Shown here in pieces: positions 18,255 through 33,054 of a DNA stretch of 64,000 nt. Each line of letters opens with the position of its first letter. Position 1 is the first letter of the stretch. The notes beneath the pieces were generated by a model. The model was not told where the DNA came from. It ran no database searches and was given only the letters and a program-made list of their open reading frames with translations. A program made the translations under genes and the position numbers. The DNA comes from Acanthamoeba sp. SK_2022b (Eukaryota; Discosea; Longamoebia; Acanthamoebidae), in NCBI GenBank assembly GCA_027943245.1, contig JANDJZ010000057.1, positions 93,825 through 157,824 of the forward strand. Direction: 5' to 3'.

Positions 18255-18563
18255 TCGCTCTCCGCCGGCGGGCCGATCCTCACCCCGTCGCTGGAGGCGA
18301 TCGCGCTGGTGCCGATGTTCCCGCACACTCTCTCCGCCCGGCCACTGGTGATCAACGGCGACAGCACCATCCGCCTGAAGTTTTCGCAGATCGGCAGCGA
18401 TCTGGAGATCAGCTGCGACAGCCAGATCGCACTGCCGATCCAGGAAGGGGAAGAAGTGCTGATCCGCCGCAGCGATTTCCACCTGAATCTGATTCACCCG
18501 AAGGACTACAGCTATTTCAACACGTTAAGCACCAAGCTGGGCTGGTCGAAAAAATTGTTCTAA
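17685..18563 (+). CDS. nadK: NAD kinase
   Basis: The 292-residue protein has the kinase signature [11 protein letters not shown] and the NE/D and [15 protein letters not shown] motifs of NadK, which phosphorylates NAD to NADP. Length equals E. coli NadK. It is divergent from grpE and is followed at 87 bp by the SOS gene recN. Confidence 0.98.
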
Positions 18564-18583
18564 AATCTACGCCGGCCACTTTA

Positions 18584-18599
18584 CTGTATATAAAACCAG
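18584..18599 (+). promoter_or_regulatory. LexA box 1 of recN
   Basis: CTGTATATAAAACCAG fits CTGT-N8-ACAG except for one base. Together with box 2, 22 bp further on, it gives the double-operator layout seen at E. coli recN. Confidence 0.85.
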
Positions 18600-18605
18600 T
18601 TTATA

Positions 18606-18621
18606 CTGTATGAAACTACAG
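18606..18621 (+). promoter_or_regulatory. LexA box 2 of recN
   Basis: CTGTATGAAACTACAG is a perfect CTGT-N8-ACAG LexA operator, 28 bp before the recN start codon. Confidence 0.92.
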
Positions 18622-18649
18622 TTATGTGTTTATACACAGGAAGGTTCCC

Positions 18650-20311
18650 ATGCTGGCGCAATTAACCATCAGCAACTTTGCTATCGTTCGTGAGTTGGAA
18701 ATCGATTTTCAACCGGGTATGACGGCGATCACCGGTGAAACCGGCGCCGGCAAATCCATCGCCATCGATGCGCTGGGGCTGTGCCTCGGCAACCGCGCCG
18801 ACGGCAACGTGGTGCGCCTGGGAGCCGCCCGCGCCGACATCTGCGCCCGCTTCTCGCTGGCGGACACCCCGTCCGCGCGCGAATGGCTGGAACAGAACCA
18901 GCTGGACGACAGCAACGAATGCCTGCTGCGCCGCGTGATCAACGCCGACGGCCGTTCACGCGGCTTTATCAACGGCACCGCCGTGCCGCTGTCGCAGCTG
19001 CGCGAGCTGGGGCAACGCCTGATCCAAATCCACGGTCAACACGCCCATCAGCTGCTGCTCAAGCCGGAGCACCAAAAAGCGCTGCTCGACGCCTACGCCG
19101 ACGAACCCGCCCTGCTGGCGGCGATGAGCCAGGCCTACCAACGCTGGCACCAGAGCTGCCGCGAGCTGGCGCACCATCAGCAGCAGTCCATCGAGCGCGA
19201 AGCACGCAAGCAGCTGCTGCAATACCAATTGAAAGAGCTGAACGAATTCTCGCCGCAGGCCGGCGAGTTCGAACAGACCGACGCCGAGTACAAACGCCTG
19301 GCCAACAGCGGCCAGCTGCTGACCCTCAGCCAGCAGACGCTGCAGCTGCTCGCCGACAGCGACGAGAACAACATGCTCAGCCAGCTCTACAGCGCCAAGC
19401 ACCTGCTACTTGAACTGGCCGGGCTGGACGACAAACTCGGCGGCCTGCTGGACATGCTGGAAGAGGCCTCTATCCAGATCAGCGAAGCCAGCGACGAGCT
19501 GCGCCACTACGCCGATCGCATGGATCTCGATCCCAATCGCCTGCACGAGCTGGAACAGCGCCTGTCGCGCCAAATCAGCCTGGCGCGCAAACACCAGGTT
19601 GCGCCGGAAGAGCTGCCGCAGCTGCATCAGCAGTTGCTGGATGAACAACAGCTGCTTTCACAGCAGGAAAGCGACCATGAGCACCTGAACGAGGCGGTCA
19701 CCCTGCATCACCAGCAGGCGCTGGCGCTGGCGGAGCAGCTGCATCAGAAACGCCTGCATTACGCCGCCGAGCTGACCACGCTCATTACCGACAGCATGCA
19801 GGCGCTCTCCATGCCGCACGGCAAGTTCAACATCGATGTGCGTTTCGAGCCGCAGCATCTGAGCGCCGAAGGGGCCAGCCGCACCGAGTTCTGCGTCTCC
19901 ACCAACCCGGGGCAGCCGCTGCAGCCGCTGGCGAAGGTCGCCTCCGGCGGTGAGCTGTCGCGCATCGCGCTGGCCATTCAGGTGATCACCGCCCGCAAGA
20001 TGGAAACCCCGGCGCTGATATTCGATGAGGTGGACGTGGGCATCAGCGGCCCGACTGCCGCCATTGTCGGCCGCCTGCTGCGCCAGCTCGGCGAATCCAC
20101 CCAGGTGATGTGCGTGACCCACCTGCCACAGGTGGCCGGGTGCGGGCATCAACACCTGTTCGTCAGCAAGCAGACCGACGGCACGGTCACCGAAACCCAG
20201 ATGGCGCCGCTGGATAAGCGCGCCCGGTTGCAGGAGCTGGCGCGCCTGCTCGGCGGCAGCGAAGTCACCCGCAATACGCTGGCGAACGCCAAAGAACTGC
20301 TGGCGGCATAA
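18650..20311 (+). CDS. recN: DNA repair protein RecN
   Basis: The 553-residue SMC-like ATPase has Walker A GETGAGKS near residue 30, a central coiled coil, and Walker [12 protein letters not shown] near the C-terminus. RecN aids double-strand break repair and is among the most strongly SOS-induced proteins. The ATG at 18650, behind AGGAAGG, gives [17 protein letters not shown] and the E. coli length; eight upstream in-frame codons are dismissed because they overlap the operator region. Confidence 0.98.
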
Positions 20312-20551
20312 AAAAGCTCAACTTTTTCACTTTCCTGCGGTCTGACAGTGACGCTGTTGACCCGAAAGATATCTAAAGTGCGGCGCGGCGGCGATTCGAA
20401 GCCTCCTCAACGGCCTGAAACAGGCCAAGCGCTTGAGGTGCTGAAAGAAAGCCAACGCGTCGCAACTTGAAAGATGAAGGGTATAAAGGTTTCCAACTGC
20501 CGCAAGGTCTATTATCATCGGCATCCTATGCCCTAAAGGAATGTGATTACT

Positions 20552-22411: not shown

Positions 22412-22775
22412 GGGGCTGATTCTGGATTCGACGGGATTTGCGAAGCCCTAGGAGCATGCCGAGGGGCGGTTGGCCTCGTAAAAAGCCGCAAAAAAATAGT
22501 CGCAAACGACGAAAACTACGCTTTAGCAGCTTAATACCCTGCTTAGAGCCCTCTCTCCCTAGCCTCCGCTCTTAGGACGGGGATCAAGAGAGGTCAAACC
22601 CAAAAGAGATCGCGTGGACGTCCTGCCTGGGGCTGAAGCGTTAAACTCAATCAGGCTAGTCTGTCAGTAGCGTGTCCATCCGCAGCTGGCCGGCGAATGT
22701 AAAGATTGGACTAAGCATGTAGTGCCGACGGTGTAGTAATTTCGGACGGGGGTTCAAATCCCCCCAGCTCCACCA
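22412..22775 (+). ncRNA. ssrA: Transfer-messenger RNA (tmRNA)
   Basis: The 364-nt RNA begins GGGGCTGATTCTGGATTCGA and ends in a T-arm (GGTTCAAATCC) plus CCACCA-type acceptor. The tag reading frame is at 22502-22534, with resume codon GCA and encoding ANDENYALAA then TAA. It rescues stalled ribosomes with SmpB. A TATACT -10 lies at 22391-22396. The 3' end of ssrA is a favoured attachment site for islands, and an accessory region follows. Confidence 0.97.
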
Positions 22776-22817
22776 AATACGTCGCCAGTGAACCAGATAG
22801 ACCCGGCGATAATAGCG

Positions 22818-22850
22818 AAAAAGCCCACAACTTCGGTTGCGGGCTTTTTT
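22818..22850 (+). terminator. Terminator of ssrA
   Basis: AAAAAGCCCACAAC, CTTCGG loop region, GTTGCGGGCTTTTTT: a U-tailed stem with one mismatch, 43 bp after the tmRNA 3' end. Confidence 0.88.
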
Positions 22851-23005
22851 GTATCCGTAATCGTTCGAGTTTATCCGGCTAAATCTGGAGACTGTTGGTA
22901 TGCGGTTTGATATACGCTAAATTGATACCAATTACGTACAACCAATAGATGGAAGACTCCGTGCATAGCGTGGACTACATAAGTATAAAAACCAGAGCCC
23001 AGCAA

Positions 23006-23149
23006 ATGGCAGAATAGCAGCAAATTGCCTTAGAGAGCATTTTTGCAGCCGTCGAGGCCAATTGGTTTGCCCTTAAGCGAACAAGGATAACTGCGGACTA
23101 GCCAAGGATATCTGGCGATCTTAAGAAAGTTGTTTTCCGAGGTCTGTAG
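23006..23149 (+). pseudogene. Possible degenerate ORF, unidentified
   Basis: From an ATG at 23006 the frame reads MAE, stop, QQIALESIFAAVEANWFAL and onward to a second stop at 23099 and a third at 23147. The middle stretch has protein-like composition, but I do not recognise the family. It may be a fragment of a former island gene or chance. Confidence 0.25.
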
Positions 23150-23546
23150 TTATCCTAATTCAGGAAATTAAGGCAAGAATGGTGATTGAAGCATTAGTAT
23201 GGCAATAGTAGAGTGCATTCCAGTTTCAGTTAGTTGACGGATCAACGCACCCCAGTTTGGGTAGCTCGCAAGAAACTACTGTTTACAGTTAACCAAGGGA
23301 GTTCCAACCGTTTAGCTATACGCTTCTGAGGCAGACAACCTTGATTATGGAGAATAAATACCTCGATAAACCATACCCTTTTACTTATAAAAAAATACCC
23401 ATTAAGCAGATGACGATCATTATTTTCGAAAAAAAGCCACCCTAACAGACGTTTAGAATGTAATTTCTACAGCTGCGCCGTGATTAGGTAAACATATCAC
23501 TTCTGTTCAGATGGACGAATTCAGTAAGCCACTCTACTACCTAAGG

Positions 23547-24266
23547 TTACAACATAAAAGGTTGGTTAGAGCTAGTTTCAATTGGAAGATATCGTTCCTT
23601 ATCGCCTCGCAAGATATGCCCGTCCAGAAAAAGGCTACGTAGCTGAGCTGTCGACGATATGCGCATTTTTATCATGGCGTTCCGTTTGTGCGTGCTTATA
23701 GTTTTATATGCAACATTAAATTTCTTGGCCAAACACTTGATACTATCCCCTTCAATGATACCTGTAATTATAGCTATTTCACTAGGTGTGAGGTTTGACA
23801 TGGGAGGACCTATGTAAAACTGGGAATTATATGAGGCAAAATTCTCTCCATCAAAAAATCGTGTCAAAAAACTAACAAAGCAACTTATGTCAATTTTTTT
23901 TGGTATCTGCCAGCCAGCCTCCCCCCGCTCAAAATTATTGAATTTATTTATAAACATGGTCGGTTTTGAAGACCAGAGCAGACACTTTACTGACGGATGA
24001 TAAGTGGCCATGAAGTGAGTGAACTCTCCCCAGTTATTATAACTCTCATTCTGACCGAAGGCCTCCATCAAATAGACATCGGCAGGCCCTTTCCTCAGCG
24101 CCAAACACATTAGTGCGGATAGACTGGATACCACATCGGTAACATTTATTCTTTCAACAAAATATTTACTTAATACCTGAACCATACTCTCCCGATAAAA
24201 AACCACCGGATCCATCACTACAATATTTATCTTTCTGTTGTTTTTCTTCAAGATTGCGATGCCCAT
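23547..24266 (-). CDS. Atypical LuxR-family response regulator of the fim cluster
   Basis: The 239-residue protein has a receiver-like N-terminal half (IVVMDPVVFYRESM, residues 15-28) and a C-terminal LuxR helix-turn-helix (LTPSEIAIITGIIEGDSIKCLA). The residue expected to be phosphorylated is Glu68 (DVYLMEAF) rather than Asp, and the acidic pocket has a single Asp19, so normal phosphotransfer is unlikely. FimZ-like regulators of fimbriae have the same fold. It lies 126 bp downstream of fimH on the same strand and could be cotranscribed. GC is low. Its target is unknown; control of fim or of motility is plausible. Confidence 0.8.
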   Translation of the reverse strand: MGIAILKKNNRKINIVVMDPVVFYRESMVQVLSKYFVERINVTDVVSSLSALMCLALRKGPADVYLMEAFGQNESYNNWGEFTHFMATYHPSVKCLLWSSKPTMFINKFNNFERGEAGWQIPKKIDISCFVSFLTRFFDGENFASYNSQFYIGPPMSNLTPSEIAIITGIIEGDSIKCLAKKFNVAYKTISTHKRNAMIKMRISSTAQLRSLFLDGHILRGDKERYLPIETSSNQPFML

Positions 24267-24392
24267 GTAATAACCATATACTTATGACCCCGAGCGCAAG
24301 TAGTTTCGAGATTAAACGAGCCCTACATGATAATCATGTCGCGAATTTTTATCTGCTAAAGCGTTTTATCGAGGTATAAGATATAGATAATG

Positions 24393-25364
24393 CTACTCGT
24401 AAACGAACGTCACGCCAATAATGGACTGAACATTGCCTGCTACCACTTGCCCATTGATTCGTGCATAGGAAGCCGTTAGTCCCAAACTTTGGGGGCTGGT
24501 ACCGACCGTACCGAGAGAGACATTCTTATTGGTAGCTACAATGCCATTACGGTTAGACAGTTGTACGCCAACGCCAGTAGCCGGATTTGAAGATGACGTA
24601 TTGGTAAATATGGTGCTTGCCGTATCAGCAGTTGTGCCGGTCAGATAATAAGCCAGCTGTTGGTTTTGTCCGCAATGGACAGTCAGCGGTACAGCAGCCG
24701 TGCCGGGGTAATCCGGCAAGGTAACCGTCACATTGCGCGATGACACGTCGCAACCACCAGTGGGAACCACCACTGTGTTATTAGCATAAATATTCCATGT
24801 GAAACGGTCTATTGTGCCATTTTGTTGACCGGTTTGAGGGTTTGTTGAATATTTATACATATTTAATCTGGCAATCAAACTACCCTTATTAATTAATACT
24901 CCTGACGCCGCTGAAATAGGCTTCAGAAATAGCATAACATTCCATGGCTGATATGAACTGGTTGTAAATGCGGTCTCTTTGGTTCTATTAGTAACTGGCA
25001 GTGGATAGCTTGAATTATAATACTTCACCGTTCCTGTGAAATTTTCCAGCGCCCCACCATAGGCGCTGCCGTCATTTAAAGCCACCCAGTCAATATAGGA
25101 TTGTGGAAGTTCATTTCGACAACTTATGCTTGAGTTTAGGTCTACAACGAGGTTCTGACCAGCCTGTACGCTAGGCGTTAAGTTAGCATAAACAGTGAAA
25201 GTTCCTGCCCCTCCTCCAGAGCTAGAATTAATTACATTTCCTGTAGCATCCTTACAAGCAAAAGCATTAGCGCCGGATGAATATGCCATTAGGCATACAG
25301 AAGCCACGAGGGCAGCAACTTCTTTTTTCTTCAACACTTTATTTAGTTTTGAAACCAGTGTCAT
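24393..25364 (-). CDS. fimH: Type 1 fimbrial tip adhesin FimH
   Basis: From the ATG at 25364, behind GAGGAG, the protein has 323 residues: a long signal peptide ending SSGANA, mature N-terminus FACK, a lectin domain, and a pilin domain beginning at VVPTGGCDVS and ending GVTFVYE. The pilin half is very close to E. coli FimH. In the lectin half the counterpart of N46 and D54 are kept, but D47 is Glu, Y48 is Leu, and the loop bearing Q133/N135/D140 is longer and different. Mannose binding may therefore be altered. Last structural gene of the operon. Confidence 0.93.
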   Translation of the reverse strand: MTLVSKLNKVLKKKEVAALVASVCLMAYSSGANAFACKDATGNVINSSSGGGAGTFTVYANLTPSVQAGQNLVVDLNSSISCRNELPQSYIDWVALNDGSAYGGALENFTGTVKYYNSSYPLPVTNRTKETAFTTSSYQPWNVMLFLKPISAASGVLINKGSLIARLNMYKYSTNPQTGQQNGTIDRFTWNIYANNTVVVPTGGCDVSSRNVTVTLPDYPGTAAVPLTVHCGQNQQLAYYLTGTTADTASTIFTNTSSSNPATGVGVQLSNRNGIVATNKNVSLGTVGTSPQSLGLTASYARINGQVVAGNVQSIIGVTFVYE

Positions 25365-25380
25365 GACGTGACTCCTCAAT

Positions 25381-25884
25381 TTAGGCGTAAGTGTATGTGA
25401 CATTAATTACGGCCTGAATACTGCCTTGCTTGGCGTTGCCATTAACTGATAACGCACGAACCTGTAATGGCAGACTCGCTGACTGTGTGGAATCATCAAC
25501 CTGAACCGCCTTGGTTTTTCCGTTGTTTAGGTTATTGCCACTGGTGTCCTGCAATTCCAATTGAAGATTGGTTGCCCCACCTTGATTTTTGTAATATCCC
25601 GTGCTGTCCGTTGTCCCCGTGAATGTTGCCGTGACTCTCGAAGTGCCTATTGGACAATTGGTCAAATTCAGCGTTACCGGATGCCAGGCTGAACCCGAGC
25701 CGGCCTGTATATAATTAAATGTAAACAAGTCGCCCAAGTCTACCGTCGCCGATGGCGTTGATACGGTGCAGGGCTTGGCCACTACGCGTCCGTTGACCGT
25801 AATGGTCACGTCAGCTGCATGCGCGGCGAATGTTGTAGTAAAAAGCAACGCCCCCGCCAGCATAATGTTCTTGATAATGATCAT
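25381..25884 (-). CDS. fimG: Fimbrial tip adaptor FimG
   Basis: The 167-residue minor pilin has a signal peptide ending AAHA and mature ADVTITVNGRVVAKPCTV, closely like E. coli FimG, plus the paired cysteines and C-terminal VTYTYA strand of chaperone-usher pilins. FimG links FimH to FimF in the tip fibrillum. Spacing is 12 bp from fimF and 16 bp to fimH. Confidence 0.94.
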   Translation of the reverse strand: MIIIKNIMLAGALLFTTTFAAHAADVTITVNGRVVAKPCTVSTPSATVDLGDLFTFNYIQAGSGSAWHPVTLNLTNCPIGTSRVTATFTGTTDSTGYYKNQGGATNLQLELQDTSGNNLNNGKTKAVQVDDSTQSASLPLQVRALSVNGNAKQGSIQAVINVTYTYA

Positions 25885-25896
25885 CTTCAGACTTCC

Positions 25897-26421
25897 TTAC
25901 TGAAACTCTAAGGTGAAATTGGCCGTCGCTGTCACTGTTCCTGCCATCACGGGAGCGCGCGTTGCCATTAAGCGTGCATAAAAGCCCAACGTATTGGGCT
26001 GGCCCGCCGTCAATGTCGTCCACTTCAGGGAGTCCTGAGCCGCATTTAATGGAATCGGAGTCTTGTCGCGATCCAGTATTTGCACTCCAATACCGCTTGC
26101 GGCGTTTGTTCCAGCATCAATCTTTAACAGGGTAGTGTTGTCGTTGTCAGAGGTTCCGACATACCCCACGCGAACTGCCGTCGCGGAACTGCCGCACTTG
26201 TCGAAGACAATCTTGAAAGGTATGGATGGCGTGACGGCCCCAACCCGGTTGAATTGCTTGGCCGCATTGCTCAACAAATCCACCGTAAAATCCTGAGAGT
26301 CAACAGAGACCGAGCAGGCATTGTCTTTTAGATAACCTGTGATGGTGATAGTACTGTCCGCCGCATGGGCATATCCCGCAACCAACGGCAACAAACACAG
26401 GATTGGAAGGTATTTTCTCAT
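25897..26421 (-). CDS. fimF: Fimbrial tip adaptor FimF
   Basis: The 174-residue minor pilin has a signal peptide ending YAHA and mature ADSTITITGYLKDNACSV, matching E. coli FimF, and ends in the donor/beta-zipper strand ATANFTLEFQ. FimF joins the rod to FimG. It lies 21 bp after fimD. Confidence 0.94.
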   Translation of the reverse strand: MRKYLPILCLLPLVAGYAHAADSTITITGYLKDNACSVSVDSQDFTVDLLSNAAKQFNRVGAVTPSIPFKIVFDKCGSSATAVRVGYVGTSDNDNTTLLKIDAGTNAASGIGVQILDRDKTPIPLNAAQDSLKWTTLTAGQPNTLGFYARLMATRAPVMAGTVTATANFTLEFQ

Positions 26422-26442
26422 TGCGTCATCATCTCCTGCTTA

Positions 26443-29034
26443 TCACCGGCAAATGGCAGAGGCATAGCTCAAAGCCTGGTTTTGACTGTCAGCCGGCAAA
26501 CTGTACGTCGCCGTGCAGCGTTCATTTTCGCTATTGCCCCACCTCACGTTGACGGTACCTTTTGGCGCAAGGCCGGTAAGGTAAACTTGCCCGCCATCTG
26601 CCACGATGCTGCCTGACTGACCATCTCCGTAAGAGGCTACAGAGCCGAACGGGACTGGCTTGCCGTTGTTTGTCAATGTCATAAGAACCTTCAGCCCGAC
26701 TTTGGCCTTGAAGTCCGCACGCACGACGGCTCCCCGTGTAGGAACGACGCTTAATACCGGTTCCTCCAGTTCGACGTTGTTCGCCAGTGTATTCGTGTTC
26801 AAGGATATCCGATTCTCGCGGTAGTCCATCGCATAAGGGAGCACGGCATAACCACGCCAATCTGTACGCACCCCTGTTTGATTCTCGACAGAAACGTGTT
26901 TCGCCCCCGGCGCCTTGATAAGCACCATGGTGTCATTGAGTGGCTGGCTGAAGGTGATGCCATTTTCGTGGGCAAGTACGCCACCACTGGCACCATAGTA
27001 AATCTGCTTATAGTCACCGCTGTGGCTATAACCGACGTTGGCGTTGCCGTAAGCGCCGCGGTAATTCAGCGCGGCGTTACCCGTTGCGCCGCTGTTACCA
27101 TTACCGCCGCTGTTATAGCCCGATTGCACGCTATAACTCAGGTTGTTATCTTCCAGCAGCGTCCCGTAAAGGCCGGCCGTATTTGTCGTACGTCCCTTGA
27201 AGTCTGTCGACGTGTTGTAACTGGCATTGGCATTTCGGAATACTGACCGGGTATCCGAGCGCATCCAGTGGCTGAACGGAATATTAATGTTGAAAGCAAG
27301 CAGTTGGTCTTTATCGTCGGACCAGGCATTTTTGGACAGACTATAACTCAGGCTCCAGCTGATATCCTGAATGGTGCTGTTATAACCAATCTGCAGCTGT
27401 TCATCTGAACGGCTGGTATTCCAGTAGCTTTGATGACTGCCAGTCAGGTATATCGTCGATGTCCGTCCAACCTGTTGCGTCACCGTCGCCTGCAAACGAC
27501 CGCGCTTGCTGTAGTTCAGATTGTAATAATCCGTCAGCTTTGGTTTGATATTCACGATCCCGTCTTCACTAATCACGGAGTAACCGCTCATGCGTCGCCA
27601 CGCGGTGTCGGCCAGAGAATAGAAGCCCCGAGTAGAATAACGGTATCCGACCAGTTGGAAATTGGTCCCTAACTCATTGAGCGATTTGTTATAGAGAAAA
27701 CGCAGAGATTGTCCCTGATGCTTGCTGCCGTCAGGCAAGGTGGCATTCGCCTGCGTAATATCTGAAGATACCGCCCCGAGGTAGCCCAGGTTTTTTCCCA
27801 CCCCGAGGTTAAAGGCACGATAGTCGTTTGAGGCACGTGTGCCGCCATAGACCGTCCAGCCATCGGGTAATCCCCAAAGCGCCGTTCCCTGGAAAAACTT
27901 CGGCTTGTCTTGTTGTTCATTACCACTGCGGAACTGCCCTGCAGTCACCGCGTACTTCACCTGTCCTTCACGCTGCAACATCGGGACGGATGAGAAGGGA
28001 ACGGTAAAGACCTGAACGGAGCCATCCGCCTCTTTCACCGTCACCTGCAGATCGCCACTGTTTCCTGCCGCATACAGATCACCGATAGTGAATGCGCCGG
28101 CGGGTACCGTGGTCTGATATATTTCATATCCGTTCTGCTTGACCGATACGCGTGCGGTACCACGTGCTATTCCATGTATAACAGGAGCAAAGCCGCGTTG
28201 ACTGTCGGGCAGCATATTATCGTCTGTGGCAACCTGAAGGCCGCGGAAGTTGATACCTTCAAAGATATCACCCGCAGTATAGCCATCACCCATCGTCAGC
28301 CGGCTGCGCCAGGATACAATGTCACGTTCAAGCCAGGTATTGACATGTTGCCAGCGATTTTCGTTATATCCCGTGCCGCTGCTGTAACTCCAGGTTGAGT
28401 TATCCCGCAGGCGCCATGCCCCCAGGTTGAGACCCGTTTGCAGATTGAGATAGGCGTAATTGCGGGTGCCGCCATTGTGACTGCGCACTTCACTGCCGGT
28501 ATAGTTGTAATTGAGCAAACCGGCCGTAATACCATTATCCCAAAGCTCGGGAGCTATGTACCCTCTCGCCTGATTTCCCATGAAAGCCTGAGGAATGCTG
28601 ATGGAAAGACGCTGGCGACCGACATCGAATGAGCTTGCAGCATCAGCAATAAGCCGTGTGAAAGGCACGCAGGCCGTGCTCTTCATTACGGCAATATCTG
28701 GAATAGTCAAGGTATTGACGCCAAGTGAAGCCAGCTGAGAGCGAGTGAGACACGGTTCCAGCTTGCTACCGTCATCACTTTTATCAAAGGTGATGTCTCG
28801 CGTCGTCACGTAACCCTCGTTCATGTAAATGTCGACACGATAGGTACCCGGCGGCGCATCAAGCCCCTTTTCGAAACTGGAGAGATCGGCAACCGATGCC
28901 GGGTCGTCAGCCAGGAACCGGGGATTGAAGTAGTTGTCTGCGCGCGCGGAAAATGTCGAAGCCACCAAGAGCAATGCCAGCGGCGTAAGCATTGCTTTGT
29001 TTAGCGCCCGTTCCCGGATGTGGTATTTTTTCAT
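26443..29034 (-). CDS. fimD: Outer membrane fimbrial usher FimD
   Basis: The 863-residue usher has a signal peptide ending SARA, an N-terminal periplasmic domain (YFNPRFLADDP), a beta-barrel with plug (GFAPVIHGIARGTARVSV), and C-terminal domains with two cysteines in the last 25 residues. It receives FimC-pilin complexes and threads the growing fimbria through the outer membrane. The 117-bp gap from fimC and 21-bp gap to fimF keep it in the operon. Length is as expected. Confidence 0.97.
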   Translation of the reverse strand: MKKYHIRERALNKAMLTPLALLLVASTFSARADNYFNPRFLADDPASVADLSSFEKGLDAPPGTYRVDIYMNEGYVTTRDITFDKSDDGSKLEPCLTRSQLASLGVNTLTIPDIAVMKSTACVPFTRLIADAASSFDVGRQRLSISIPQAFMGNQARGYIAPELWDNGITAGLLNYNYTGSEVRSHNGGTRNYAYLNLQTGLNLGAWRLRDNSTWSYSSGTGYNENRWQHVNTWLERDIVSWRSRLTMGDGYTAGDIFEGINFRGLQVATDDNMLPDSQRGFAPVIHGIARGTARVSVKQNGYEIYQTTVPAGAFTIGDLYAAGNSGDLQVTVKEADGSVQVFTVPFSSVPMLQREGQVKYAVTAGQFRSGNEQQDKPKFFQGTALWGLPDGWTVYGGTRASNDYRAFNLGVGKNLGYLGAVSSDITQANATLPDGSKHQGQSLRFLYNKSLNELGTNFQLVGYRYSTRGFYSLADTAWRRMSGYSVISEDGIVNIKPKLTDYYNLNYSKRGRLQATVTQQVGRTSTIYLTGSHQSYWNTSRSDEQLQIGYNSTIQDISWSLSYSLSKNAWSDDKDQLLAFNINIPFSHWMRSDTRSVFRNANASYNTSTDFKGRTTNTAGLYGTLLEDNNLSYSVQSGYNSGGNGNSGATGNAALNYRGAYGNANVGYSHSGDYKQIYYGASGGVLAHENGITFSQPLNDTMVLIKAPGAKHVSVENQTGVRTDWRGYAVLPYAMDYRENRISLNTNTLANNVELEEPVLSVVPTRGAVVRADFKAKVGLKVLMTLTNNGKPVPFGSVASYGDGQSGSIVADGGQVYLTGLAPKGTVNVRWGNSENERCTATYSLPADSQNQALSYASAICR

Positions 29035-29151
29035 GTTATCCGTGCCTGCTCCATAAACCAGGTGACTTGTCGCTACCGCACGCCGTCATCAATGCCGGTG
29101 CTGCGTTACCTGCGTTATTGAATCCATTGTTTTAGTGAATGACTCAGATCG

Positions 29152-29853
29152 TTACTGCAAGGTGCCTTTCATCACAGACGTGAGCGCACCGTAATCATTA
29201 ATCGTGCGATATGTAATTGCACTGCCGGCATCGCCCGGCAGTTTCACCGTTGCCTCCCCCATAGGCGGGACCATGACATTGGCTAATGAACGTGTGCCGG
29301 CATTCAATTCCGTGACGGTCAGAAAATAGGGTGTTGGATTATTCAGTACCAGTGTGTTCGCATCGCGTTTAAACGTCAGTTTTCCGGGGGCCTGATCAGG
29401 CGCCATACTGAGATTTTGTGGGCGATACAACAATTTGATTCGGCTCGTTATCGCCAGTTGAAGCGTATTTTCTTTCTGTTTTGCCTTGTCCAGAGAGGGA
29501 ATGGCTTTGACGTTGACCCAGAAAAGACTTTCGCGGTCTTTAGGCAAGGCGTTATTGGTTGCATCAATAATACGCAGCGTATTTTCTTTTTTCCCCTGCA
29601 TGAGGAACAACGGCGGAGTAATAACGAACCGGCCTTCTTTTTGACCATCATCGTTCTCGACCCAGGATTGAATAAGAAAGGTGTCTTTATCATTATTGTT
29701 GCTCACACCCAGAGTGACCTGTTTCTGTTCTGCCGGATAAATAACGCGTGTTGCCCCAAGAGCCACGCCCGCTTCAGCATGCGGAGTACAAAATACGACT
29801 GCCAAAGCCAGCAGTGAACCCATGACGTTTCCGGTCGCTTTCATTTTAATCAC
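29152..29853 (-). CDS. fimC: Periplasmic fimbrial chaperone FimC
   Basis: The 233-residue protein has a signal peptide ending HAEA and the two-domain immunoglobulin chaperone fold: LGATRVIYPAEQKQ carries the conserved Arg, SRIKLLYRP the conserved Lys that anchor pilin C-termini, and NPTPYFLTV the second domain. The GTG start at 29853 has AGAGG at good spacing; an ATG three codons in is less well placed. It folds and delivers fimbrial subunits to FimD. Confidence 0.95.
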   Translation of the reverse strand: MIKMKATGNVMGSLLALAVVFCTPHAEAGVALGATRVIYPAEQKQVTLGVSNNNDKDTFLIQSWVENDDGQKEGRFVITPPLFLMQGKKENTLRIIDATNNALPKDRESLFWVNVKAIPSLDKAKQKENTLQLAITSRIKLLYRPQNLSMAPDQAPGKLTFKRDANTLVLNNPTPYFLTVTELNAGTRSLANVMVPPMGEATVKLPGDAGSAITYRTINDYGALTSVMKGTLQ

Positions 29854-29944
29854 GTTAACCTCTTGGGCGGATAACCGCCGTTTTAACCTTTTGCGCGCGC
29901 TTATCTCATCCGAGATAAAAGTTTCATACGCGAAAACGAATGTT

Positions 29945-30484
29945 TTATTGGTATGTCAAAGAGAACCAAGCCTGGGCATTTGCAGCACCACCGATAACCG
30001 TATTGCCGGTTGCCCGATATTTGGCAACAAATTGCAAGATACGCGTTCCTTTAGTCAGCGGTTTCCAAGACTGAGGTTCTGAATTAATGGGTATGAGTTG
30101 CCCCTGTTCATCGAACAGGGCGATGCCGACGCCAGACGCAATTCCCTCGCCTTCGCCAACCGACAGAACATCAGGGTTTTTGCCATCGGCTACGCCGTGA
30201 AAGACGATACCGACGCGATCGCTGACATTGGGATTACAATCCTGGAGATGCAAACTGAACGGCACCGGATCGGCGTCATCCCCTGCATCCTTGAAACGGT
30301 TACTGCTAACCTGTCCCATGCGAACAACCAGTTGCCTGTCACCCGCCTCAACCGTACAGGCTTCAGCGATGAGCTCCCCCTGAAAGCGCATCTGTCCTCC
30401 AGGAAGCGTGACGTTCCACTTGTTGCCGGCGATAGACAGAGGAGCAATGAAAAGCAGGCAGAGTCCCAGTCTGGTTTTGAGCAT
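29945..30484 (-). CDS. fimI: Fimbrin-like protein FimI
   Basis: The 179-residue pilin-like protein has a short signal peptide ([11 protein letters not shown]), the [17 protein letters not shown] first strand, and a C-terminal [10 protein letters not shown] strand. In E. coli FimI is the rod terminator placed between fimA and fimC, exactly its position here. A U-tailed hairpin between fimA and fimI would lower its expression relative to FimA. Confidence 0.9.
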
Positions 30485-30510
30485 CGCTTATTCCCTCTTC
30501 GATAGCTGAA

Positions 30511-30530
30511 AACAGGCCGTCCTGGCCTGA
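30511..30530 (-). terminator. Attenuator-like hairpin between fimA and fimI
   Basis: On the minus strand CAGGCC, 5-base loop, GGCCTG, then TTTTC. A short partial terminator here would let FimA, the major subunit, be made in excess over the downstream genes. Confidence 0.55.
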
Positions 30531-30553
30531 TTAAGCATCCTTGCAGACCGGTA

Positions 30554-31102
30554 TTACTGGTACTGAACTTTAAAGTTGGCGTTCGCGTTGGCAGTACCAG
30601 GAGTGGCAGCACCGGTGGCGATGTAACGCGCCTGGAATGGCAGAGTGTTGGTACCGTCAGTCAGAGTGGCAGCAGTACTGAAGGTTGCACCGTCGAATGC
30701 CAGCGCTTTGCCTGCACTGTCCAGCACCTGCACACCCACGTTGGTAGCACCACCCGCAGAGGAGCTTTCCAGTGCCAGAGCAGTTGGGTTCTCAGCATTG
30801 ACAGCAACACCAGAGAATGCAATGGCCGCTTTGGTAGCAACGGTGGTATCGCAATCGTTCAGCTGAATGTTGAAGCCTACAGCAGAGCTGGTTTTACCCG
30901 CCTCGCTCAGCGTGGCAGTTTTGACCTGGCCCAGCTGGACGGTTTGGTCTACAGAACCGGCATCAACGGCGCAAGCAGCGTTAACTACTTCACCTTTAAA
31001 GTGAACGGTACCACCGTTAACGGTAGTAGTTGCTGCATGAGCCAGGCCAGCAGTCATCAGAGAGGCGGCAATCAAGGTGTTGATAAGACGGATCTTACGC
31101 AT
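30554..31102 (-). CDS. fimA: Major type 1 fimbrial subunit FimA
   Basis: From the ATG at 31102 the 182-residue pilin has signal peptide [23 protein letters not shown], mature N-terminus [20 protein letters not shown], two cysteines about 40 residues apart, and C-terminal NFKVQYQ. It forms the helical rod of the type 1 fimbria. It is the first gene of fimAICDFGH and lies 115 bp from the invertible element. Codon use is richer in GC than the flanking non-coding DNA. Confidence 0.95.
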
Positions 31103-31217
31103 AAGTTCAAAACTCCATGTCTTGGTAAAAGGCCAATAATTGGCATAACAACTTGATTCAAATGAGCATTTTTTCTGTTTGTCTCGCGCCAAATCGAACA
31201 CGGAAAGACAAAAAAAG

Positions 31218-31240
31218 TAGTCAAAATGAACCAAATTGTA
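31218..31240 (+). repeat. Left inverted repeat of fim switch
   Basis: Twenty-three bases, TAGTC...TTGTA, identical in reverse complement to 31504-31526. The match stops exactly at both ends (mismatch at 31217/31527 and 31241/31503). Confidence 0.95.
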
Positions 31241-31503
31241 TCATTTGGAGTTAAATATTGTTTTTTGCATAATTACAGTTAAATGCTTCTAAATAAATAT
31301 GCATTGTAGTCAAACAAGCTGGAGAGGCGATTGATGGGATAATATAAGAATGGATAAAGTATGGATTGCGACTGCAAAGAATTTTGCACTCTCAGATGTT
31401 TCTGCTGCGGTTGGCTAGTTAGGTAACTAATAAAAGCGGATATTCTGTTAAAAAAAAGAATCCAAGAAGAATTGACTTGGCGCAAATTATAGACGAAACT
31501 AAT

Positions 31504-31526
31504 TACAATTTGGTTCATTTTGACTA
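31504..31526 (-). repeat. Right inverted repeat of fim switch
   Basis: Reverse complement of the left repeat over all 23 bases. It ends 6 bp from the recombinase stop codon. Confidence 0.95.
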
Positions 31527-31532
31527 ATTCCT

Positions 31533-32093
31533 CTACAATTCCTTTTGCCAAACCTCTGCAAACCGACGATGATTGCTCGAGGTATATAACACTGTGTGTT
31601 GAATGTTTCTATGTCCCAAATAGTCCTGTATCAGCCGCGTATCTGTCCCCCTGTTAGCCAAAGCATATCCGCATGAATGCCTCAACATATGTGGATTAAG
31701 AGAGACGGCGATACTTGCCAAGGAACCGAACTTCTTCATCATGTTATAAACTTGTTGGCGAGAAAGAGGACCGCCTTTTTGCGAGAGAAATATCCAAGGT
31801 GATTCGCAGCCACGCCATGTTACTCTTTCCTCTAGCCAAGCTTTTAGAAGCTTTATCTCTGAAGCCAAAAGTGGATGCGTTGTTTTTAAGCCGCTTTTTA
31901 GCCTGTTTACGTGCACGACTTTATCAATGAGATTGATATCCGAAAATTTTAAGTGGCAGAGCTCACTAACCCTGAAACCATGAATAAAACACATTTGAAT
32001 AAAACACTCATCTCGCTTAGGGAAACTTCCTTTACGAGATGCCTCAAGCAAGCGATCTATTTCATTTTGTGTAAGATATTTTCTTTTCTTCAC
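31533..32093 (-). CDS. FimB/FimE-type tyrosine recombinase
   Basis: The GTG at 32093, seven bases after GGAGG, gives 186 residues starting VKKRKYLTQNEIDRLL, aligned with FimB; an extension of 40 codons upstream is open but unsupported. All catalytic residues are present: Arg41, Lys66, His135, Arg138, His161 and Tyr170 (HMLRHSCGYALA, GHRNIQHTVLY). FimB and FimE invert the fimA promoter in E. coli; MrpI does so in Proteus. Here one recombinase is encoded, so it may switch both ways. It is transcribed toward the switch, the E. coli orientation. GC is low. Confidence 0.92.
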   Translation of the reverse strand: MKKRKYLTQNEIDRLLEASRKGSFPKRDECFIQMCFIHGFRVSELCHLKFSDINLIDKVVHVNRLKSGLKTTHPLLASEIKLLKAWLEERVTWRGCESPWIFLSQKGGPLSRQQVYNMMKKFGSLASIAVSLNPHMLRHSCGYALANRGTDTRLIQDYLGHRNIQHTVLYTSSNHRRFAEVWQKEL

Positions 32094-32670
32094 AGAAACA
32101 CCTCCATATTTTAGGCCGTGTGAAAAATTACCGTCGATTTTCAAGCTTCTTGATATCAATAGTATTATCTCAAGTGAAACATAGTTAGGCAATATAATTA
32201 AGGTATAAATCAAGATGGTTTAATCCGTGTATTAATATCACAGCCTATTTATTGAACGACATAACTTAATTGCGGACACCATCTATTTTTCAAGCTATCT
32301 TTTCCATGCATAATAACTTTTAAATAAAAAACGAATCACATTCCAATATGGAAACATCTGATTTCATCATGTCAATAAAAATGACTATACATACTACTTA
32401 TCACTCTCCCGTCTATTAAACCCGACTAAGAATGCATTTCACATCAGCATTGACCTGTTCGCGTCGTTGGCTAATACACTGCGACCTGGGTGATCCGCTA
32501 ATACGTTCTTCTATTTATCTCATATACTGAGCACAAAAAGATTGTGTGGTGTGTAAGTGGCTGAAGTGAAAATTTCAAAGCTCCTGTGCAAGTGTAAGCA
32601 TCCAGTAAATCGAATTATTCAATTTTAGAGATCTTTCGGCATATAGAATGTGTCCTTTAAAGAGATCATC

Positions 32671-32832
32671 ATGCGCAAAGCCCATTTTACTGAGCATCAG
32701 ATCATCCTCGTACTGAACTCCGTCGAAGCAGATTGGACCGTCAAAAATGTTTGCCGCGAAGCAGGAATATCTGAGGCCTCGTACTACAACTGAAAAGCAA
32801 AGCGCGGCGGGAATTCACCCTATGATATTAAA
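32671..32832 (+). pseudogene. IS3-family transposase orfA remnant
   Basis: From the ATG at 32671 the frame reads MRKAHFTEHQIILVLNSVEA and on through the helix-turn-helix GISEASYYN, where the usual tryptophan codon has become TGA (32791); KAKRGG then follows in frame before similarity ends. This is the N-terminal part of the OrfA of IS3-group elements (IS407-like, MRKSRFT-type). The rest of the element, including orfB, is absent. Confidence 0.85.
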
Positions 32833-33022
32833 TAAATAAAATATTTTAAGGAGGAAATAAAACGAGTATGCTTACATTTTCTGGTATTAGGTTTCTTTGT
32901 TGTGCAATTTCCTCGCGGTTATCGCTTTGTCCCTTCGTTATTCAAACGTCATCGTTCGCTTCCTTTCAGTGGCGATTACCCTTTGGTGAGCTGATACGTG
33001 CTTAAGCCACATTCCCAAATAT

Positions 33023-33046
33023 CCGGCATGCCCGCAGGCATGCCGG
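33023..33046. repeat. Perfect inverted repeat after the PepSY operon
   Basis: CCGGCATGCC, 4-base loop, GGCATGCCGG, 8 bp beyond the stop of the minus-strand PepSY gene. No clear U-tract follows; it resembles a REP-like element or a weak terminator. Confidence 0.6.
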
Positions 33047-33054
33047 ACGCTACC

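What the first reader, a model, noticed from the sequence alone, without database searches (positions are those of the whole stretch)
31218..31526. Phase-variation switch with 23-bp perfect inverted repeats ahead of fimA
A FimB-like recombinase gene, a 309-bp segment bounded by perfect 23-bp inverted repeats, and fimA lie in a row in the E. coli fim order. The repeats are far longer than the 9-bp ones of E. coli fimS and the gene set has only one recombinase, so switching is predicted to be carried out by a single enzyme in both directions.
Basis: partly seen in the sequence, partly recalled or inferred. Interest (0 to 1): 0.92.

Follow-up and report, generated by a model that had tools for sequence, protein, structure and literature searches.

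The report
Invertible fimbrial promoter switch in Serratia
A Serratia marcescens-like bacterium carries a repeat-bounded stretch of DNA in front of its type 1 fimbria genes, very probably an on/off switch of the kind known from E. coli and Proteus; it is a new example of a known device rather than a new one.

Summary
In detail: perfect 23-bp inverted repeats (31218-31240 / 31504-31526) bound a 309-bp element between a FimB-family tyrosine recombinase gene and fimA; none of 400 simulated sequences held a repeat that long. Best explanation: an ordinary fimS-type phase switch. The four catalytic residues are present, and a TTGACT -35-like box faces away from fimA at the position of the E. coli MG1655 fimS promoter, so the sequence was probably read OFF; its -10 box is weak. 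Repeat length is not distinctive: relatives share as little as 8 bp perfectly and a Providencia plasmid has 22 bp. One recombinase per switch is known from Proteus MrpI. The assembly holds two more FimB-like recombinases beside a second putative switch. No opposite-orientation copy was seen among 25 Serratia elements; by a junction test about 95% of matching E. coli genomes are OFF too. Unexpected: near-identical fim operons carry three different switch modules, and one boundary lies exactly at the fimA-side repeat.

The parts
31533..32093 (-). FimB-family tyrosine recombinase (DNA invertase), 186 aa, GTG start
   Evidence: Pfam Phage_integrase E 9.4e-48. NCBIfam PRK09870 259.8 bits against cut-off 221, the model that E. 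coli FimB matches best. R41, H135, R138 and Y170 align with FimB R47, H141, R144 and Y176. 55% identical to FimB and 46% to FimE.
31504..31526 (-). IR_L, recombinase-side inverted repeat
   Evidence: Perfect 23-bp match to IR_R; only pair reported in the assembly.
31218..31240 (+). IR_R, fimA-side inverted repeat
   Evidence: Also the point where near-identity with G011 begins.
31218..31526 (.). Putative invertible element, 309 bp outer to outer
   Evidence: 20 surveyed elements, this one included, measure 301-342 bp.
31472..31500 (+). Putative fim promoter inside the element, pointing away from fimA (OFF): TTGACT, 17-nt spacer, GAAACT
   Evidence: Best-scoring site at that end, 8.8 against 7.1 at the fimA end. 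The -35 position is shared by 25 of 26 elements and by 0 of 26 at the other end. The -10 box is weak and the plain consensus scan does not list the site.
31146..31158 (-). IHF-like site (recalled consensus WATCAANNNNTTR) between IR_R and fimA
   Evidence: One of 3 pattern matches in the 1.4 kb scanned, the other two lying within fimA; the G001 sequence at the same place also fits (by eye). Weak evidence.
30554..31102 (-). fimA, major type 1 fimbrial subunit
   Evidence: NCBIfam FimA 176.6 bits against cut-off 140.
29945..30484 (-). fimI
   Evidence: NCBIfam FimI above cut-off.
29152..29853 (-). fimC, chaperone
   Evidence: Pfam PapD_N and PapD_C; best NCBIfam model FimC, below its cut-off.
26443..29034 (-). 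fimD, usher
   Evidence: Pfam Usher E 9.1e-217.
25897..26421 (-). fimF
   Evidence: NCBIfam FimF above cut-off.
25381..25884 (-). fimG
   Evidence: NCBIfam FimG above cut-off.
24393..25403 (-). fimH, mannose-binding tip adhesin
   Evidence: Pfam FimH_man-bind E 1.2e-46.
23547..24266 (-). LuxR/GerE-type regulator at the end of the cluster
   Evidence: Pfam GerE E 2.6e-9.

Best explanation
This is a fimS-type phase-variation switch. The adjacent FimB-family tyrosine recombinase binds both 23-bp repeats, exchanges strands in the shared core (TGAACCAA) and inverts the 309-bp segment. The segment carries the fimA promoter. In the sequenced orientation the promoter points back towards the recombinase gene, so fimA is OFF; inversion would point it at fimA and turn on fimA-I-C-D-F-G-H. 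Shown by sequence: the recombinase with its catalytic residues, the paired repeats, the gene order and the conserved -35 position. Inferred: that inversion takes place and where strands are exchanged, that the promoter is active, that the phase is OFF, and that the adjacent enzyme works in both directions.
For: Repeats and order. Recombinase family and catalytic tetrad. Inverted repeat longer than in any of 400 simulations. In 26 of 26 elements (25 Serratia plus E. coli) the arms share a core of at least 8 bp, although the core differs between lineages: 9 hand-picked representatives, 7 cores, 4 of 200,000 permutations match as well. This is partly by selection, since 20 of the 26 were kept because their arms matched. 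The hexamer TTGA[CG][AT] lies at the same inner place at the recombinase end in 25 of 26 elements and at the fimA end in 0 of 26 (range chosen). E. coli MG1655 fimS has its promoter facing fimE at that place. The repeats resemble the E. coli sites beyond the 9-bp core (by eye).
Against: No opposite-orientation copy: each of the 20 surveyed Serratia elements has its best partner aligned forward, and the five plasmid elements lie the same way. The E. coli control tempers this: 4423 of the 4667 genomes with a match (of 5426) hold at least 80% of the OFF junction. The window's -10 box (GAAACT) is weak; the consensus scan finds no more promoter-like sites than shuffles (5 against a mean of 4.8) and does not list this one; the two ends of the window's element differ little in score (8.8 against 7.1). 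The E. coli fimS interior aligns better forward with 14 of 20 Serratia elements but better in reverse with 6 of 20, mostly at noise level.
Confidence: 0.91

Rival explanations
1. The switch works, but its direction is set by more than one enzyme: the adjacent recombinase plus one or both of the two unlinked FimB-family recombinases of the second fimbrial locus act on it. (A variant of the best explanation, so the odds overlap.)
For: G000:C309 carries two recombinases (52% identical) at either end of a fimbrial operon, with a second 309-bp repeat-bounded element. Unlinked recombinases (HbiF, IpbA, IpuA, FimX) act on fimS in E. coli (PMC11316696 passage).
Against: The repeat cores differ by a base (TGAACCAA here, TGAACTAA there). 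MrpI is described as the sole recombinase for its switch (PMC9820224 passage). C309 is assumed, not shown, to be from the same cell.
Confidence: 0.3
2. A frozen or very slow switch: the element once inverted but now stays in one orientation, and fimA is driven from elsewhere or is silent.
For: All 25 Serratia elements compared lie the same way; the window's -10 box is weak.
Against: Perfect arms and an intact recombinase. In the second locus the arms change together: G004 has TGAGCTAA in both arms where its 9 orthologues have TGAACTAA in both. E. coli, which does switch, also looks overwhelmingly OFF in assemblies.
Confidence: 0.08
3. Not a switch: the repeats are a chance or transcription-terminator feature.
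For: AT-rich region, 33% GC.
Against: 0 of 400 simulations reached 23 bp; repeat pairs with related cores bound elements of similar size beside the same gene family in 20 of the 41 loci surveyed; no terminator-like site found.
Confidence: 0.01

Closest known systems
E. coli fim switch (fimS, FimB/FimE)
   Same: Recombinase, element of about 310 bp and fimA in the same order; recombinase 55% identical to FimB; repeat sites alike beyond the core by eye; -35 box at the same inner position.
   Different: One adjacent recombinase instead of two; perfect repeat 23 bp instead of 9 bp; core TGAACCAA where E. coli has TTGGGGCCA.
Proteus mirabilis mrp switch (MrpI, sole recombinase, 252-bp element)
   Same: A single recombinase next to the element, described as switching either way (passages of PMC9820224 and PMC7444556).
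   Different: Different fimbria (MR/P), shorter element. The mrp repeats were not compared here: the P. mirabilis locus fetched showed no repeat pair in the 2.1 kb searched and is probably not mrp.
Serratia marcescens plasmid-borne fim clusters (pE13, AGR_1573 unnamed1, pAM01, pET_P3, pTE4)
   Same: Same fim structural genes (fimD 98-99% DNA) with a FimB-type recombinase and element upstream.
   Different: Recombinase 80% or 63% identical at DNA level, element interior 32-57%, arms perfect over only 8-17 bp.
Providencia rettgeri plasmid pVCSW10.1 invertase locus
   Same: One invertase gene in the 5.5-kb stretch read, perfect 22-bp inverted repeats bounding a 324-bp element downstream of it, fimbrial genes further on.
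   Different: Different fimbrial operon and repeat sequence; a helix-turn-helix regulator gene lies between element and fimbrial gene; the record holds 3 places that match the recombinase.

Membership tests
fimS-type invertible promoter switch (E. coli fim) | FimB-family tyrosine recombinase with catalytic R, H, R, Y | tested here: met
   residue positions of FimB from PMC9820224 (passage).
fimS-type invertible promoter switch (E. coli fim) | Inverted repeats bounding an element of about 300 bp directly upstream of fimA | tested here: met
fimS-type invertible promoter switch (E. coli fim) | fimA promoter inside the element | tested here: inconclusive
   -35 box conserved in position in 25 of 26 elements; weak -10 in the window; consensus scan no better than shuffles.
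fimS-type invertible promoter switch (E. coli fim) | Both orientations occur | tested here: inconclusive
   One orientation only in 25 Serratia elements; reads not available; in E. coli 4423 of 4667 matching genomes look OFF.
fimS-type invertible promoter switch (E. coli fim) | Two adjacent recombinases (FimB and FimE) | tested here: not met
   One on contig C730. So not a member of the two-enzyme fim form in the strict sense; it works like it.
Single-recombinase fimbrial switch (MrpI type) | One linked recombinase beside the element | tested here: met
   one match on C730.
Single-recombinase fimbrial switch (MrpI type) | That recombinase alone inverts in both directions | not testable with these tools
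   Needs a mutant or a reporter assay.
Type 1 fimbriae (fim) | fimA-I-C-D-F-G-H with a mannose-binding FimH | tested here: met
   (fimC and fimD by Pfam and best NCBIfam models; the FimC model is below its cut-off).

The most novel reading that the evidence does not exclude
The recombinase plus invertible element behaves as a replaceable module. Serratia fim operons that are nearly identical in their structural genes carry at least three different switch modules, and between the window and G011 (with pET_P3 and pTE4) the change from 99% identity to unrelated sequence falls exactly at the fimA-side recombination site. The recombinase could have made that exchange itself by joining two operons at their shared sites, after which the two arms became identical, giving the window's unusually perfect repeats.
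Probability: 0.18. Interest if true: 0.55.

Novelty: new member of a known kind. Interest (0 to 1): 0.3.

Why it matters
A 2013 paper states that fimbrial phase variation had not been described in S. marcescens (PMC3726613, passage read), and the listings of the searches made here show no later description. If the switch works, type 1 fimbriation could be mixed ON/OFF within a culture of strains that carry this operon, which would complicate fimA expression studies. The reach is limited: fimA-like DNA turned up in only 3 of 30 Serratia-genus genomes. The plasmid copies with different switch modules on almost the same operon are a natural set for asking what sets switching bias.

Tried and rejected
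Looked for an opposite-orientation copy and found none: 20 elements from a survey of 41 loci and 5 plasmid elements; a 28-base pattern in viral contigs gave 0 matches. The 41 loci (L022-L062) are 6, 28 and 7; of the 54 matches listed, 32 were held as loci and the other 22 were not examined. Rows dropped: 4 of 41 (L037, L060, L061, L062), whose pairs were unlike the core; 17 of 41 had no pair at the threshold. pAM01 had no pair at the threshold and its element was read directly.

Considered that long repeats mark a new mechanism; rejected because arm identity within this switch family varies from 8 to 23 bp and a 22-bp case occurs elsewhere. Considered an integrase-type island because the cluster follows ssrA: no convincing direct repeat of the ssrA end was found at the far border. 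No PADLOC defence family matched the recombinase. The fimA DNA search gave 3 of 30 Serratia-genus genomes and 6 of 394 order-level genomes; the latter scored only 2 candidates per genome and is a lower bound. The P. mirabilis locus did not serve as an mrp yardstick. No structure prediction or fold search was run. The permutation test is weakened by the way elements were chosen (arms had to match to be kept) and by hand-picked lineages.

Full report
What is there. On the minus strand a 186-codon recombinase gene (31533-32093), a 309-bp element bounded by perfect 23-bp inverted repeats (31504-31526 and 31218-31240), and fimA (30554-31102) lie in a row, followed by fimI, C, D, F, G, H and a LuxR-type gene. 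The repeats match over 25 of 26 bases when extended, were reported nowhere else in the 44.9-Mb assembly with up to 3 mismatches, and exceed every one of 400 simulated sequences (longest 18).

What it is. The recombinase passes the NCBIfam model PRK09870 (259.8 bits, cut-off 221) and is below the cut-off of PRK09871 (208.6 against 222). E. coli FimB and FimE each pass both models, FimB scoring highest on the first and FimE on the second. It is 55% identical to FimB and 46% to FimE, and the four residues that PMC9820224 lists as essential in FimB (passage) are conserved. A search of 5.8 billion proteins gives 3519 relatives at E <= 1e-40; the best of the 120 listed is 100% identical and named from Serratia marcescens. 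The 2-kb stretch 18500-20500 is 99% identical to one genome of the genus, G014, and 98% to five others. The window is therefore a bacterial contig (C730) inside a larger assembly.

How it compares with relatives. Loci L022-L062 (41; 6, 28, 7) were scanned for repeat pairs: 20 had a pair with a related core and were kept, the window's included, 17 had none and 4 had unrelated pairs. They cover 32 of the 54 matches. Five plasmid elements and E. coli fimS bring the set to 26. In 26 of 26 the two arms share a core of 8 bp or more, while the core differs between lineages: 7 cores in 9 lineages, matched as well in 4 of 200,000 permutations. Two cautions: the 20 surveyed elements were kept because their arms matched, and the lineages were chosen by hand. 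Perfect arm identity ranges from 8 bp (pE13, AGR_1573, pAM01) to 23 bp (the window). Length is thus not a defining trait. A Providencia plasmid stretch with one invertase has perfect 22-bp repeats round a 324-bp element.

Which way it lies. A sigma-70 scoring scheme with recalled base frequencies puts the best promoter at the recombinase end, pointing away from fimA, in 20 of 21 elements scored, with a tie in G011. The -35-like hexamer TTGA[CG][AT] begins at position 40-65 of the 110-nt end segment at the recombinase end in 25 of 26 elements and at the fimA end in 0 of 26; the range was set; the exception, G024, has TTGACG there. E. coli MG1655, whose reference sequence I recall as OFF, has TTGAGA/TATGAT at the same place. 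The window (TTGACT at 31472-31477, GAAACT at 31495-31500) is therefore read as OFF. Against this, the window's -10 is poor, the plain consensus scan does not list the site and finds no excess over shuffles, and the margin over the other end is small (8.8 against 7.1). The E. coli fimS interior aligns better forward with 14 of the 20 Serratia elements and better in reverse with 6 (all of the second-locus type), only G011 standing clearly above noise (34 against 4).

Does it invert? No assembly shows the other orientation. Each of the 20 surveyed elements has its best partner aligned forward; every pair scoring 30 or more is forward and no reverse score exceeds 15, though in some unrelated low-scoring pairs the reverse is the higher. 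Of the plasmid elements pE13 and pAM01 align forward (271.5 against 32), and pET_P3 and pTE4 align forward with both and with G011; AGR_1573 is nearly identical to pE13 and lies the same way in the alignment. As a control, the MG1655 OFF junction was sought in 5426 E. coli genomes: 4667 have a match and 4423 of these cover at least 80% of it, so about 5% are ON or divergent; only 40 rows were listed. With such a bias 25 of 25 OFF is unsurprising, the more so as many of the 25 are close relatives; it neither proves nor refutes switching. Indirect support is that arms change together: G004 has TGAGCTAA in both arms where its nine orthologues have TGAACTAA in both.

One enzyme? C730 holds one such recombinase, but contig C309 of the same assembly holds two more (52% identical) at either end of a second fimbrial operon with its own 309-bp element (the operon's genes were recognised by eye from the translations). 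The cores differ by one base. MrpI of P. mirabilis is the recorded case of a sole recombinase that can switch its promoter either way (passages).

Module exchange. The fim cluster lies directly after the tmRNA gene: synteny with G014, G011, G015 and G022 breaks at 22777-22891 and resumes at 32938-33051, with 1.3 to 10.9 kb of other DNA in its place. Almost the same operon occurs on five S. marcescens plasmids (5 of the 70 plasmid records matched cover at least 80% of the query) and in G001 and G011. Against the window, fimA to fimG agree at 95-100% DNA identity in G011 and the plasmids, except fimA of AGR_1573 (90%); G001 has 89-99%. The recombinases fall into three groups: the window; G001, pE13, AGR_1573 and pAM01 (80% to the window, 98-99% to G001); G011, pET_P3 and pTE4 (63% to the window, 100% to one another). 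More distant G024 (68%) is a fourth. Between the window and G011, identity is 29 or 30 of 30 bases in the nine bins from the inner edge of the fimA-side repeat onwards and 10 to 14 of 30 in the six bins inside the element. The stretch from the repeat to fimA is 99% identical in that pair but 75-80% with the second group. This shows that near-identical operons carry different switch modules and that one boundary coincides with the recombination site. Whether homologous recombination or the recombinase itself did it cannot be told from sequence.

Literature. [quoted passage not shown] marcescens. The listings (9 of 9 papers; 20 of 21; 4 of 4; 6 of 6; 15 of 212), and the empty searches, show no paper on such a switch in Serratia by title or abstract start. 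Only open-licence papers are held, so this is not proof of absence. Papers were seen as passages only: PMC3726613, PMC7444556, PMC11316696, PMC3419637, PMC11349298, PMC9820224.

Noticed in passing
G000:C309:276300-286200 (L070, L058): A second fimbrial operon in the same assembly with its own putative 309-bp invertible element, two FimB-family recombinases and two genes that look LuxR-like by eye; orthologous elements were found in nine other Serratia-genus genomes.
   Followed up: partly
window 22412-33051: The fim cluster sits directly downstream of ssrA (tmRNA), at a place where four near relatives carry other DNA of 1.3 to 10.9 kb.
   Followed up: partly
window 24800-25403: The signal and lectin part of fimH is only 49-61% identical in DNA to three relatives although fimG beside it is 79-97% identical, suggesting exchange or fast change of the adhesin tip.
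   Followed up: no
L003, L067, L086, L088, L089 at IR_L: In G001, G011, pE13, pAM01 and pET_P3 the stop codon of the recombinase gene (TGA) lies inside the left inverted repeat; in the window and G024 the stop comes 10 nt before the repeat motif used in the script.
   Followed up: yes
window (G000:C730): A Serratia marcescens-like contig within a 44.9-Mb, 1129-contig assembly, which is far larger than a bacterial genome; the tool's text speaks of introns for it.
   Followed up: no
G001:C44:9736-10284; L088 2870-3379: A second, 59% identical recombinase lies about 5.6 kb upstream of the switch in G001, and pAM01 has a shorter invertase gene at a like distance; on the window's contig only one recombinase was found.
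   Followed up: partly
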